From Actinospica acidithermotolerans (GTDB taxonomy: Bacteria > Actinomycetota > Actinomycetes > Streptomycetales > Catenulisporaceae), in assembly GCF_018139625.1 (NCBI RefSeq), contig NZ_JAGSOH010000024.1:1-64000 (forward strand): a stretch of DNA of 64,000 bases, in the 5' to 3' direction. Of the stretch, positions 6,324 through 8,997 are shown in pieces (the stretch's first letter is position 1; every line of letters begins with the position of its first letter). A program made the translations under genes and the position numbers. The notes beneath the pieces are model-generated. The model was not told the origin of the DNA and did no database searches. It saw only the letters and a program-made list of their open reading frames with translations.

Positions 6324-7061
6324 ATGGCCACGGCCAAGCTGAACCAGATCATCGCGGTGGAGAAGGGCGTCAAGAGCAAGTCCTTCGCGGAGCTGACCGA
6401 GGCTCACCACCTGCTGCTCAAGCCCGCGCTGCTGTCCGGCATCTCGCGCAGCTACCAGCCGAAGGACGACGAGGGCGAGCAGCTGCCGCCGGAGTCGACC
6501 AAGGTGCAGGTGAAGGCCGAGGAGGTGCTGCGCAAGACCGCCGCGACGCTGACCCGGCTCTTCGACGTCACCGCGACGAAGGACTGGGCCAACTGCGTGG
6601 CCCGCGCGGACGTCAAGGTCGACGGCACCGTGCTGCTCGAGGACGTGCCGGTGACCTACCTGCTCTTCCTGGAGAAGCAGCTGACCGACCTGCACACCTT
6701 CGTCAAGAAGCTGCCGGTGCTCGACGCGGCGGAGTCCTGGGCGCAGGATGTGTCCTCGGACAGCTGGAAGACCGATCCGGTGCAGACGTACCGGACCAAG
6801 CGGGTGCCGCGCAACCACGTCAAGGCCGAGGCGACCGAGAAGCACCCGGCGCAGGTCGAGGTGTACTACGAGGACGTCACCATCGGCTACTGGACCACGG
6901 TGAAGTTCTCCGGCGCGCTGCCCGCGCGGCGGGTGAACGAGCTGCTGGACCGGGTCGAGAAGCTGCAGCAGGCCGTGAAGTTCGCCCGGGAGGAGGCCAA
7001 CGGCACCGAGGTGGACGACCGGCAGGTCGGCGAGGCGGTGTTCGGCTTCCTGTTCGGCTGA
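6324..7061 (+). CDS. Conserved actinobacterial protein of unknown function
   Basis: A 245-residue soluble, highly charged protein, rich in Lys/Glu and with no signal peptide or membrane segment. It begins MATAKLNQIIAVEKGVKSKS after an AAAGGGGG ribosome-binding site. The helical C-terminus (ARRVNELLDRVEKLQQAVKF) could form a short coiled coil. I recall similar proteins in many streptomycete genomes but cannot assign a function. It sits directly upstream of the permuted tRNA-like region. Confidence 0.8.
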   Translation: MATAKLNQIIAVEKGVKSKSFAELTEAHHLLLKPALLSGISRSYQPKDDEGEQLPPESTKVQVKAEEVLRKTAATLTRLFDVTATKDWANCVARADVKVDGTVLLEDVPVTYLLFLEKQLTDLHTFVKKLPVLDAAESWAQDVSSDSWKTDPVQTYRTKRVPRNHVKAEATEKHPAQVEVYYEDVTIGYWTTVKFSGALPARRVNELLDRVEKLQQAVKFAREEANGTEVDDRQVGEAVFGFLFG

Positions 7062-7159
7062 GCCGCGCAGCGGACAACTCCATAGACTCCTTCCCGGTTG
7101 AGCCCCGGGGAGGTGGCGCGCAAGCGCAGGCTGAAACTCAGTGATCAGGCTGATGCGTA

Positions 7160-7241
7160 CGGCGTGAAAGTGCAGGTTCGAGTCCTGCCCCCGGCACCCG
7201 CGCCGGGGTGGCCCAACCGGTAGAGGCGGCGCCGCTCTCAA
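7160..7241 (+). tRNA. Putative circularly permuted tRNA, unit 1 (apparent anticodon CUC)
   Basis: The 3' half precedes the 5' half. 3' half: CGGCG 7160-7164, variable loop 7165-7171, T-arm GCAGG-TTCGAGT-CCTGC 7172-7188, acceptor strand CCCCGGC 7189-7195, discriminator A7196. After a 6-nt connector (7196-7201, which includes that A) the 5' half follows: acceptor GCCGGGG 7202-7208 (7/7 complementary), TG, D-arm 7211-7227 with GCC/GGC stem and A14, A15, G18, G19 in the loop, then CGCCG 7230-7234 (5/5 complementary to 7160-7164) and loop CTCTCAA 7235-7241. Reassembled length is 77 nt, a normal tRNA size. U33 and A37 are in place. Amino-acid identity is only suggested (CUC would read Glu GAG). CCA is not encoded. 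Functionality is inferred. Confidence 0.55.
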
Positions 7242-7307
7242 ACTCAGGCTCTCGCTCGAGACTCGGTCATCTCCGTCGATCCCCGAATCGACCGGACGCG
7301 GGCGACC

Positions 7308-7386
7308 ACGTGAGTTGCCGGTTCGAATCCGGCCCGCGCCTCTTCACGGCGCGGTAGGCCTAATGGAAGGGCCGCACGTCTGATCA
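7308..7386 (+). tRNA. Putative circularly permuted tRNA, unit 2 (apparent anticodon GAU)
   Basis: Same order as unit 1. 3' half: ACGTG 7308-7312, variable loop AGTT, T-arm GCCGG-TTCGAAT-CCGGC 7317-7333, acceptor CCGCGCC 7334-7340, discriminator T7341. A 7-nt connector (7341-7347, which includes that T) leads to the 5' half: acceptor GGCGCGG 7348-7354 (7/7), TA, D-arm 7357-7373 (GGCC/GGCC stem, loop TAATGGAAG), G26, CACGT 7375-7379 (5/5 with 7308-7312) and loop CTGATCA 7380-7386. The reassembled length is 73 nt. The flanks 7294-7307 and 7387-7401 pair with each other, so the precursor ends extend the anticodon stem. Weak points are C37 and the D-loop, which lacks canonical A14/A21. Identity (Ile-like GAU) is tentative. 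Confidence 0.55.
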
Positions 7387-7426
7387 GGATGACCCGCGTT
7401 CTTAAACGTGTCGGGGTGTGCAAGTC

Positions 7427-7541
7427 GACGGGCCCGATGGTTCGGTCGCCGCTGCGGTGGAATCCGCACGGTGGCCCGTCAGACGGGATCTGGGTCCCGG
7501 TGGATGGACACTCCGCCGGGACCCGCCGCCTTTTCGGCGGC
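7427..7541 (+). ncRNA. Strongly structured non-coding segment (four nested or serial hairpins)
   Basis: No coding pattern is seen between the tRNA-like units and the clp-like gene, but pairing is dense. GACGGGCC 7427-7434 pairs perfectly with GGCCCGTC 7473-7480 and encloses TGCGG/CCGCA (7453-7457 with 7464-7468). Next comes a 12-bp stem 7492-7503 with 7513-7524 (one G-T pair), then GCCGCC/GGCGGC (7525-7530 with 7536-7541) around TTTTC. The last two hairpins could terminate the tRNA transcript; the first may be a separate RNA domain or leader element. The remaining bases up to 7668 show nothing further that I recognise. Confidence 0.45.
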
Positions 7542-7668
7542 CGGCCGCACCGGCGCGGCGGTTCCGGACCTCGCCCTTTCCATCCCTTTTCGGGCCGTAC
7601 CGGGTTACTGTGAACCGTGCCAGTACTGTGCGATCCCCTGCCTTGACCGGGGAGTAGGGCGGCTGCCG

Positions 7669-8997
7669 ATGTTCGAGCGGTTCACCGATCAGGCGCGGCG
7701 CGTCGTGGTGCTGGCGCAGGAGGAGGCGCGCCTGCTCGACCACTACTACATCGGCACCGAGCACCTGCTCCTCGGACTCCTGCGCGAGGGCGACGGGCTC
7801 GCCGCGCGGGCGCTGGCCGAGCTGGGCGTCGCGCTGGACGACGTGCGCGGGCAGGTGATGTCGATCGTCGGCCACGGCGAGCGGAGGCCGACCGGGCACA
7901 TCCCGTTCACGCCGCGCGCCAAGAAGGTGCTCGAGCTCTCGCTGCGCGAGGCGCTGCGGCTCGGGACGGACTACATCGGCACGGAGCATCTGCTGCTCGG
8001 GCTGATCCGCGAGGGCGAGGGCGTCGCCGCACAGGTGCTGACGCGGCTCGGCACGTCGCTCGACGAGGTGCGCGAGACCGCCGTCGCGATCTACGAGCGG
8101 CTGCCGCCGGAGGAGCGCGAGGAGCCCAGCAGGGCGACCGGCGAGCGGGTGCGCGAGCGCGAGGCGCCGGCCGGGTTCTTCGAGCCAAGATTCCAGCTGC
8201 CGGCCTTCCTGCAGCGTCGCGGCTTCGGCGGCAGGCAATTCGATACGGAGGCGGTCCGCGCGTACACGGTGGCGCCCGTCCCGCGGCCGCCGGTGCGGGC
8301 GGCGGACCCGGTCGTGGAGCGGCCGGCGGAGTCGGACCGGCTGCTCGCGGTGCTGGCCCGGCGCGAGCGCAACAACGCGATGCTGATCGGCCCGAGCGGC
8401 TGCGGCAAGTCTGCCCTGGTGCGCGGCCTCGGGCAGACCCTCGCGGCGAACCTCGGGCCGGCCTCGCTGGACGCCGCGGAGGTCGTGGAGCTCGACCTCG
8501 GGGTCCTGCGCACCTGGGCCGACCGCGTCGTACGGCGCAGCAGGTCGCCGGTCGTGACCGTCGAGAACCTGGATCTGGCGCTGCGGATCGACGACCAGTC
8601 CGGCGGCCGGTTCGTCACCGCGCTGGCGAGCCTCGCAGAGGCGCGGGCGCCGCTGATCTGCACAGCGTCGGCCGAAGCATACGACCGGCTCGGACAGGGC
8701 TATCCCACCCTGGCCAACCGGTTCGAGCCGGTCGAAGTGCCCGAGGCGAGCGCGGAGTTCACGGCGTCCGTGCTGGAGGCCCTGCGGCCCGGTCTCGAGG
8801 AGTTCCACGGGGTCGCGATCGACGAGTCCGCGCTGGCGGCCGCCGTCGAGCTGGCGCCGAGGGTACGCGGCGGCCGGGTGCTGCCGGGCGGTGCGGTGGA
8901 TCTGCTCGACACCGCGGCGGCGCGGCTCGCCGTGGTGCGGGAAACCGAGGGTGACCGGCCGGTGCTCGACGCGTCACGACTGCGCGGCGCGGCCTGA
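7669..8997 (+). CDS. ClpC-like protein: double Clp N-repeat plus one degenerate AAA+ domain
   Basis: A 442-residue protein starting MFERFTDQARRVVVLAQEEA, the classic ClpC N-terminus. Two Clp_N repeats (~1-75 and ~77-150, each with YIGTEHLLLGL) are followed by an Arg/Glu/Pro-rich linker and one AAA+ module with Walker A GPSGCGKS (~242-249). The Walker B region reads SPVVTVENLDLAL instead of the usual hhhhDE, so the catalytic Asp-Glu pair seems lost. The second ATPase ring with ClpP-binding loops of full ClpC (~840 aa) is absent. It may act as an adaptor or decoy binding the same clients as ClpC. The ATG at 7669 follows GGGGAGTAGGGCGG. Confidence 0.85.
   Translation: MFERFTDQARRVVVLAQEEARLLDHYYIGTEHLLLGLLREGDGLAARALAELGVALDDVRGQVMSIVGHGERRPTGHIPFTPRAKKVLELSLREALRLGTDYIGTEHLLLGLIREGEGVAAQVLTRLGTSLDEVRETAVAIYERLPPEEREEPSRATGERVREREAPAGFFEPRFQLPAFLQRRGFGGRQFDTEAVRAYTVAPVPRPPVRAADPVVERPAESDRLLAVLARRERNNAMLIGPSGCGKSALVRGLGQTLAANLGPASLDAAEVVELDLGVLRTWADRVVRRSRSPVVTVENLDLALRIDDQSGGRFVTALASLAEARAPLICTASAEAYDRLGQGYPTLANRFEPVEVPEASAEFTASVLEALRPGLEEFHGVAIDESALAAAVELAPRVRGGRVLPGGAVDLLDTAAARLAVVRETEGDRPVLDASRLRGAA

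What the first reader, a model, noticed from the sequence alone, without database searches (positions are those of the whole stretch)
7160..7241. Tandem gene pair, unit 1: tRNA halves in reversed (circularly permuted) order
A perfect T-arm and acceptor 3' strand (CCCCGGC) is followed, only 6 nt later, by a complementary acceptor 5' strand (GCCGGGG) and a D-arm with A14, A15, G18, G19. The anticodon stem strands CGCCG and CGGCG lie at the far ends of the unit and pair 5/5. Rejoining gives a 77-nt cloverleaf with loop CTCTCAA (U33, A37). Circularly permuted tRNA genes are known from algae and some archaea; I am not aware of this being a standard feature of actinobacteria. In bacteria permutation is familiar for two-piece tmRNA.
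Basis: partly seen in the sequence, partly recalled or inferred. Interest (0 to 1): 0.93.

Follow-up and report, generated by a model that had tools for sequence, protein, structure and literature searches.

The report
Twin tRNA-mimic RNA beside DUF7873 gene
Right after a gene for a protein of unknown function (DUF7873) the DNA holds two tRNA look-alikes written in swapped order, and that gene followed by at least one such look-alike recurs in soil actinobacteria and in phages of very different hosts, so this is likely an undescribed RNA-protein partnership and probably not a tRNA used for decoding.

Summary
T-arm, acceptor and D-arm lie in permuted order twice (7160-7241 and 7308-7386); ARAGORN accepts both units once rotated, and none of 500 shuffles of unit 1. 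A decoding permuted tRNA is not the best reading. Both units are weak full-length matches to YrlA, Rfam's family of tRNA-mimicking Y RNAs (30.9 and 35 bits, cut-off 69), but this genome has no detectable Ro60/TROVE gene. Instead the pair follows a DUF7873 gene. In 60 related genomes 35 of 35 DUF7873 loci carry the unit-2 RNA, and all 34 full-length hits of 57 bits or more lie beside DUF7873. The arrangement recurs in phages of Actinobacteria, Proteobacteria and Cyanobacteria. Every unit-2 helix that I counted covaries. I propose a DUF7873-bound RNA that presents tRNA-shaped heads to tRNA-binding machinery; the partnership and the action are inferred. A relaxed scan finds no tRNA-like first head in 12 of 13 proteobacterial-type phage loci read. 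This is a new variant of the tRNA-mimic RNA kind; no held paper names DUF7873.

The parts
6324..7061 (+). DUF7873 (PF25283) gene, 245 aa from ATG 6324; predicted partner protein
   Evidence: Pfam 397.5 bits, cut-off 27; 35 of 35 DUF7873 loci in 60 relatives carry the unit-2 RNA next to it; AlphaFold2 pLDDT 94.3
7125..7159 (+). 5' scaffold strand of unit 1, with the CUnAR repeats conserved in relatives
   Evidence: alignment A8; own 5'/3' flanks hybridise better than the mean swapped pairing in 33 of 43 loci
7160..7196 (+). unit 1, 3' half of the tRNA-like head: stem CGGCG, T-arm, acceptor 3' strand, base 73
   Evidence: sequence; RNAalifold T and acceptor stems with both-side changes
7196..7201 (+). 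unit 1 linker (ACCCGC); in relatives often A73-CCA
   Evidence: CCA after position 73 in 20 of 43 first units
7202..7241 (+). unit 1, 5' half of the tRNA-like head: acceptor 5' strand, D-arm, stem CGCCG, then CTCTCAA
   Evidence: sequence
7242..7264 (+). 3' scaffold strand of unit 1 (CUCAGGCUCUCGCUCGAGACUC)
   Evidence: invariant T and A columns in A8
7281..7302 (+). 5' scaffold strands of unit 2: CCCCGA 7281-7286, internal loop AUCGACC 7287-7293, GGACGCGGG 7294-7302
   Evidence: helices 1 and 2, all 13 counted pairs with changes on both sides
7308..7340 (+). unit 2, 3' half: stem ACGTG, T-arm, acceptor 3' strand
   Evidence: the ACGTG/CACGT stem itself was not among the pairs counted
7341..7347 (+). 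unit 2 linker (TCTTCAC); position 73 is U here and U or G in 38 of 43 loci
7348..7386 (+). unit 2, 5' half: acceptor 5' strand, D-arm, stem CACGT, then CTGATCA
7393..7416 (+). 3' scaffold strands of unit 2: CCCGCGUUC 7393-7401, internal loop UUAAACGUG 7402-7410, UCGGGG 7411-7416
   Evidence: helices 1 and 2; TTAAA in 33 of 43 loci against 4 of 43 antisense

Best explanation
The finding is the first half of a predicted structured RNA with two tRNA-like heads in permuted order, encoded directly downstream of a DUF7873 gene, and it likely works as a DUF7873-bound tRNA mimic, not as a tRNA that decodes. Shown by sequence and comparison: the permuted T-arm/acceptor/D-arm heads, the covarying stems of unit 2, the conserved internal loops, and the tight linkage to DUF7873 in the actinobacteria and phages examined. 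Inferred: the RNA is transcribed together with or just after the DUF7873 message; DUF7873 binds the scaffold stems (the AUCGA/UUAAACG loop of unit 2 and the CUnAR repeats of unit 1); the heads are seen as tRNA by tRNA enzymes, so that some acceptor tips are opened at the linker to leave tRNA-like ends (encoded CCA in a good part of loci); and the complex then occupies, recruits or diverts tRNA-binding machinery (RNase P/Z, CCA-adding enzyme, EF-Tu, or a tRNA-cutting enzyme). In phages this would protect or redirect translation next to the phage tRNA genes; in actinobacteria the module looks taken over as a chromosomal gene.
For: Both units match RF02553 YrlA over the full model (30.9 and 35 bits, E 1.2e-4 and 7.9e-6). 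DUF7873 directly upstream, same strand, in 19 of 19 relatives' loci fetched because of the RNA, while none of the 10 other window genes tested is found there at E 1e-8. Among 60 genomes 35 of 35 DUF7873 loci have the unit-2 RNA; 34 of 34 full-length model hits of at least 57 bits are beside DUF7873. 211 of 240 viral and genome loci have at least one tRNA-like unit downstream, 111 have two, controls zero upstream and antisense. The unit-2 model, built from the window, actinobacterial-type phage and Streptomyces sequences only, finds the RNA in 77 of 80 proteobacterial-type phage loci. Covariation: 92.0% of cells paired against 59.1% shuffled, 372 double changes against 117.7, score 0.881 against 0.253, 0 of 500 shuffles; sliding the partners by 1-3 columns drops the score to 0.198 or less. 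CCA exactly after position 73 in 20 and 14 of 43 de-duplicated loci, at most 2 at nine other offsets. TROVE not detected in the own genome, in 10 of 34 DUF7873 genomes or in 12 of 14 DUF7873 phages.
Against: No expression, binding or phenotype data. The outer stems of unit 1 were not found by RNAalifold and rest on a modest swap test (own better than the mean swap in 33 of 43, yet 29% of single swaps do as well); a proposed crossing helix failed (25 of 41). In proteobacterial-type phages two units pass the strict scan in only 3 of 79 loci (21 of 79 in a relaxed scan whose extra hits I did not verify), and a relaxed scan upstream of unit 2 finds no first head in 12 of 13 loci read. Several linkers are hairpins that extend the acceptor stem (L114, L133, L143), which speaks against obligatory opening. 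The window's own linkers encode no CCA. At E up to 0.1 only one of four further loci (L095, not L069, L070 or L243) shows a YrlA match. ARAGORN reads a native-order tRNA across the scaffold and unit 1 in 24 of 61 two-unit loci (none in the window itself); its upstream acceptor strand pairs no better than swapped ones (5.70 against 5.94 of 7), so I take it as chance. The AlphaFold2 model has no clear relative, so RNA binding by DUF7873 rests on linkage alone.
Confidence: 0.62

Rival explanations
1. A Ro60-type Y RNA: the units are YrlA RNAs that work with a Ro60 orthologue encoded elsewhere, and DUF7873 is a chance or minor neighbour.
For: Rfam scores (30.9, 35) are close to those of the pair that sits before a TROVE gene in a relative (34.8, 37.7); that pair is also tandem. 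Ro60 and YrlA form an RNP with PNPase in other bacteria (PMC8394870, passages read).
Against: No TROVE match in the own genome, in 10 of 34 DUF7873 genomes or in 12 of 14 DUF7873 phages. The full-length unit-2 model separates the DUF7873-linked RNAs (34 hits of 57-128 bits) from hits within 4 kb of TROVE (28 of the hits classed, all below 57 bits).
Confidence: 0.1
2. Permuted tRNA genes: the transcript is cut and joined into ~77-nt tRNAs that decode.
For: ARAGORN accepts both rotated units; CCA after position 73 in many relatives; permuted tRNA genes exist in some archaea and algae (recalled).
Against: Covarying scaffold stems lie beyond the 'anticodon' stem; the genome has ordinary tRNA-Glu(ctc) and tRNA-Ile(gat); no first head was found in 12 of 13 proteobacterial-type phage loci read.
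Confidence: 0.05
3. Two-piece RNA of the permuted-tmRNA type: the linker is excised by tRNA-processing enzymes, the acceptor ends are CCA-completed and charged, and the charged head acts on the ribosome.
For: Same gene order as permuted tmRNA (recalled); CCA and a biased base 73 (A in 35 of 43 first units, U or G in 38 of 43 second units).
Against: No match to the Rfam tmRNA models in the window at E up to 5; hairpin linkers in some loci; no tag reading frame was looked for.
Confidence: 0.13
4. A 3' UTR element of the DUF7873 message: RNase P/Z cuts at the tRNA-like heads control message stability, with no RNA product of its own.
For: Same strand; the T-stem of unit 1 starts 76-145 nt after the DUF7873 match in the 15 relatives with two units; tRNA-like elements can be cleaved by RNase P (recalled).
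Against: Conserved internal loops and long covarying scaffold stems go beyond a cleavage signal.
Confidence: 0.1

Closest known systems
YrlA Y RNAs (Rfam RF02553), partners of bacterial Ro60/Rsr
   Same: tRNA-like T, acceptor and D arms in permuted order on a basal stem; full-length match to the family model; tandem pairs also occur before a TROVE gene
   Different: score below the curated cut-off; neighbour gene is DUF7873, not TROVE; a unit-2 model with its own scaffold stems and loops separates the two; CCA at the acceptor tip in many loci
Permuted (two-piece) tmRNA, Rfam RF04321
   Same: order T-arm, acceptor 3' strand, linker, acceptor 5' strand, D-arm (family layout recalled)
   Different: no model match in the window; tag reading frame not looked for
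Circularly permuted tRNA genes of algae and archaea (recalled)
   Same: 3' half before 5' half with a short linker
   Different: no defined anticodon loop; scaffold stems lie beyond the stem
DUF7873, PF25283 (unknown function)
   Same: the upstream gene is a full member (397.5 bits)
   Different: no described RNA partner is known to me; no paper in the held library contains the name

Membership tests
YrlA Y RNA (RF02553) | score at or above the Rfam gathering threshold (69 bits) | tested here: not met
   30.9 and 35 bits; but the pair beside a TROVE gene in L027 also scores only 34.8 and 37.7, so this threshold separates little
YrlA Y RNA (RF02553) | tRNA-like module of T, acceptor and D arms on a basal stem | tested here: met
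YrlA Y RNA (RF02553) | encoded near a Ro60/Rsr (TROVE) gene | tested here: not met
   no TROVE match in the own genome; DUF7873 is the constant neighbour
YrlA Y RNA (RF02553) | binds Ro60 | not testable with these tools
   needs pull-down
Ro60/TROVE family (for the DUF7873 protein) | TROVE domain by sequence | tested here: not met
   Pfam lists only DUF7873 plus a chance SYCE1 hit at E 0.64; BLASTP against a TROVE protein (partial frame) of L027 finds nothing above chance, best E 4.6
Ro60/TROVE family (for the DUF7873 protein) | ring fold of Ro60 | tested here: inconclusive
   fold searches name no Ro60 chain among the 50 rows shown each, which does not exclude it
Permuted tRNA gene | halves in reversed order that form a cloverleaf when rotated | tested here: met
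Permuted tRNA gene | one anticodon kept among orthologues | tested here: inconclusive
   with 72 junctions allowed per locus ARAGORN offers 55 and 43 isotype/anticodon readings over 61 loci; the commonest is callable in 55 of 61 first units and 36 of 61 second units. The test is too permissive to decide
Permuted tRNA gene | mature ~77-nt joined and charged RNA | not testable with these tools
   needs RNA data
Permuted tmRNA (RF04321) / tmRNA (RF00023) | match to the family model | tested here: not met
   no tmRNA or tmRNA_permuted row for window 6950-7700 at E up to 5 (one lower-scoring overlapping row of a shared clan is not shown there)
Permuted tmRNA (RF04321) / tmRNA (RF00023) | tag peptide reading frame | not tested
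   -

The most novel reading that the evidence does not exclude
A previously undescribed ribonucleoprotein, DUF7873 plus a scaffold RNA carrying one or two permuted tRNA heads with their own CCA ends, used by large phages to take hold of the host's tRNA machinery and kept by Streptomyces and relatives as a cellular gene.
Probability: 0.35. Interest if true: 0.92.

Novelty: new variant of a known kind. Interest (0 to 1): 0.8.

Why it matters
It ties a large Pfam family without known function (6807 homologues among the candidates scored, 73 phage records) to a specific structured RNA, and it would extend tRNA mimicry beyond Ro60 Y RNAs and tmRNA. Because gene and RNA sit together in little more than a kilobase, deletion and pull-down would test it directly. 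It also warns annotators: the units are missed by tRNA finders in native order or misread by them, fall below Rfam's threshold, and one phage record has a suppressor tRNA annotated over the spot.

Tried and rejected

The literature search is limited: Chen 2014, Sim and Wolin 2018 and Sim 2020 are not held, so I cannot exclude that they mention such RNAs; PMC7765460 (passages read) says that several phages were reported to have YrlA, citing Sim and Wolin 2018. Searches made.

Full report
What is there. The window (an Actinospica genome by inference: its same-genus relative G001 has the locus on a contig of 13,724 bases, the length of the Actinospica durhamensis contig found) holds two head-to-tail units between a DUF7873 gene and a gene with Clp N domains. 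Each unit runs: 3' strand of a stem, T-arm with a TTCGA loop, acceptor 3' strand, short linker, acceptor 5' strand, D-arm, 5' strand of the stem. Rotated, both units pass ARAGORN (Glu-ctc, Ile-gat); of 500 shuffles of unit 1 none does at the default setting and 9 at a relaxed one.

What it resembles. Rfam at its curated thresholds finds nothing in the window. At E up to 5 both units match YrlA over the whole model with 30.9 and 35 bits. YrlA RNAs are tRNA-mimicking Y RNAs, partners of Ro60 (PMC8394870, passages read). Yet the own genome has no TROVE match. A relative, G037, has a different tandem pair right before a TROVE gene (L027), which scores 34.8 and 37.7 bits: so the Rfam score does not tell the two classes apart, but the neighbour gene does. 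Of four further DUF7873 loci searched at E up to 0.1, one (L095, 38.2 bits) shows YrlA and three do not.

The constant neighbour. A DNA search found matches in 24 of 60 genomes (the 60 include the own genome). I fetched wider stretches for 19 of the 24; left out were the own genome, G013 (contig ends there) and G023, G041 and G047, whose 23-44-base matches held no proper unit in my scans. DUF7873 lies directly upstream on the same strand in 19 of 19 at 76-88% protein identity, and none of the ten other window genes tested is there; that strict scan sees two units in 15 of the 19 and one in 4. A covariance model of unit 2 (R1, 16 sequences including the window) was run on the 60 genomes (run with stricter filters, weak rows not all listed). 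DUF7873 occurs in 34 of 60, 35 genes in all. 35 of 35 have a unit-2 hit of at least 53 bits within 1 kb, and 34 of 34 full-length hits of at least 57 bits are beside DUF7873; of the listed weaker hits down to about 32 bits, 13 are near DUF7873 (G013's unit 2 cut by a contig end, and hits on the other unit), 28 within 4 kb of a TROVE match and 53 elsewhere, which I did not check one by one. DUF7873 and TROVE are not tightly linked: both 24, DUF7873 only 10, TROVE only 12, neither 14 (Fisher p 0.068). In a wider draw DUF7873 is in 7 of 396 genomes of the phylum, all in the own family or one family of the same order, so in bacteria it is local; the control genome Deinobacterium chartae also has a match.

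Phages. tblastn finds DUF7873 in 73 phage records (Vibrio 29, Gordonia 12, Rhizobium 12, Klebsiella 7, Serratia 6, Arthrobacter 3, Pseudanabaena 2, Rhodococcus 1, Microcoleus 1). Six diverse ones were read first and 6 of 6 have two units after the gene; in five they fill an unannotated gap right after it, in Gordonia phage Keelan they come after a tRNA-Thr gene and under a small annotated frame. Of nine more phage records, two have two units by the scan (in Ziko one of them with a 6/7 acceptor), six have one, and one (Microcoleus phage, L078) none; in L078 a HEARO element lies between DUF7873 and a weak model hit. A Nonomuraea record has two. From IMG/VR and GTDB contigs I fetched 246 loci; 240 have at least 500 nt downstream: 211 of 240 have at least one unit, 111 two; by set 68 of 76, 58 of 79, 6 of 6 and 79 of 79; upstream and antisense controls 0, single-base shuffles 0.05 in total. 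Many of these loci are near relatives, so they are not 240 independent cases. Model R1, which was built from the window, actinobacterial-type phage and Streptomyces sequences, finds unit 2 after DUF7873 in 77 of 80 proteobacterial-type loci. Leaving out calls within 500 nt after DUF7873, ARAGORN finds 229 tRNAs in 36 of 80 loci of the first phage set, 98 in 29 of 80 of the second, 3 in 2 of 6 cyanobacterial-type ones and 1 in 1 of 80 chromosomal loci: the phage copies often sit among tRNA genes, the chromosomal ones hardly ever.

Structure. From the two-unit loci 43 remain after removing sequences more than 0.72 alike. Of these, 38 unit-2 regions (A7) and 33 unit-1 regions (A8) were aligned; I left out 5 and 10, the ones that looked most divergent. 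Unit 2: RNAalifold gives 31 pairs, 28 with double changes; counted on 28 pairs chosen from it, 92.0% of cells pair against 59.1% in shuffles, score 0.881 against 0.253, and slid partners give 0.198 or less. The loci had been picked by T-arm and acceptor pairing and a D-loop GG motif, so those stems are favoured by choice; the D-stem pairs and both scaffold helices were not selected for pairing and covary (helix 2: eight pairs, 12 to 23 double changes each). The structure came from the same alignment, which leans the counts. The short stem next to the head (the 'anticodon' stem) did not align and is not in these counts. Unit 1: 15 pairs, 14 with double changes (T, acceptor, D). Swap control: own flanks hybridise better than the mean swapped ones for unit 1 in 36 of 43 (proximal) and 33 of 43 (distal), for unit 2 in 38 and 42 of 43; still 22%, 29%, 21% and 10% of single swaps do as well. 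Invariant letters mark internal loops: AUCRA and UUAAACG in unit 2, CUnAR repeats and UAUYGCUC in unit 1. In 13 proteobacterial-type loci printed, a relaxed scan finds a tRNA-like first head in one (L071); in L168 I read a plain hairpin there with the scaffold letters kept. I therefore take unit 2 as the core and unit 1 as an optional second head.

Acceptor tips. Linkers range from 4 to several tens of bases. CCA sits exactly after position 73 in 20 of 43 first and 14 of 43 second units (about 0.7 expected each; no more than 2 at nine other offsets), and base 73 is A in 35 of 43 first and U or G in 38 of 43 second units. This is what one expects of real tRNA ends, or of heads derived from tRNA genes. 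Against obligatory opening, several linkers are hairpins stacked on the acceptor (by eye).

Protein. AlphaFold2 on 105 sequences gives pLDDT 94.3 and pTM 0.71 for the best of five models (the other four 93.4, 93.4, 77.3, 62.6): helices and one long beta hairpin. N86, A217, A221 and N222 are invariant in those 105 (numbering of its first row). No known fold matches well.

Mechanism. I commit to a DUF7873-bound tRNA mimic. Shown: anatomy, covariation, linkage. Inferred: expression, binding, action on tRNA machinery, and phage benefit. A decoding tRNA is unlikely (ordinary tRNA-Glu-ctc and tRNA-Ile-gat are present).

Novelty. No Rfam family is reached at threshold over the units in 20 loci searched; no held paper contains DUF7873. 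That bacterial Y RNAs mimic tRNA is known. I recall from the abstract of Chen 2014 that likely Y RNAs near Ro60 were reported in bacteria and phages; that paper could not be read. I file this as a new variant of the tRNA-mimic RNA kind.

Noticed in passing
L027:1440-1850: A second, different tandem pair of tRNA-like units lies right before a TROVE (Ro60-type) gene in relative G037, about 95 kb from its DUF7873 locus; 28 model hits in the 60 genomes lie within 4 kb of TROVE matches.
   Followed up: partly
L078:3441-3650: In Microcoleus phage My-WqHQDG a HEARO RNA-and-ORF element sits between DUF7873 and a weak hit of the tRNA-like RNA, as if inserted there.
   Followed up: no
L077:3518-3597: Klebsiella phage vB_KpM_FBKp24 is annotated with a suppressor tRNA (tRNA-Sup-TTA) that overlaps the first part of the second tRNA-like unit; likely a mis-annotation.
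   Followed up: no
L067:2063-2591: Gordonia phage Phendrix carries a tmRNA match (89 bits, cut-off 47) inside its tRNA array, upstream of DUF7873, with no feature of that kind in the record's table.
   Followed up: no
L121:2501-3226: The DUF7873 frame of one viral contig has a TAG at codon 12, which may point to a recoded stop in that phage or a later start.
   Followed up: no
L328-L331 (Rhizobium phages RHph_Y65 and RHph_TM30): These two phages encode both DUF7873 with its RNA and, about 6 kb away, a TROVE match in a 529-aa open frame.
   Followed up: no
G003:C1 3313871-3314596 and 6402497-6403222: One relative has two DUF7873 loci, each with a full-length unit-2 hit.
   Followed up: no
L243 and other Streptomyces loci, from about 60 nt before the unit-1 T-stem: ARAGORN reads a native-order tRNA (often Phe-gaa) over the scaffold and unit 1 in 24 of 61 loci; the acceptor pairing is no better than in swapped controls.
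   Followed up: yes
window 7492-7540: Downstream of the pair lie a 13-bp hairpin (12 of 13 paired) and a second G+C-rich hairpin, a possible end of transcription; the terminator scan did not score it.
   Followed up: no
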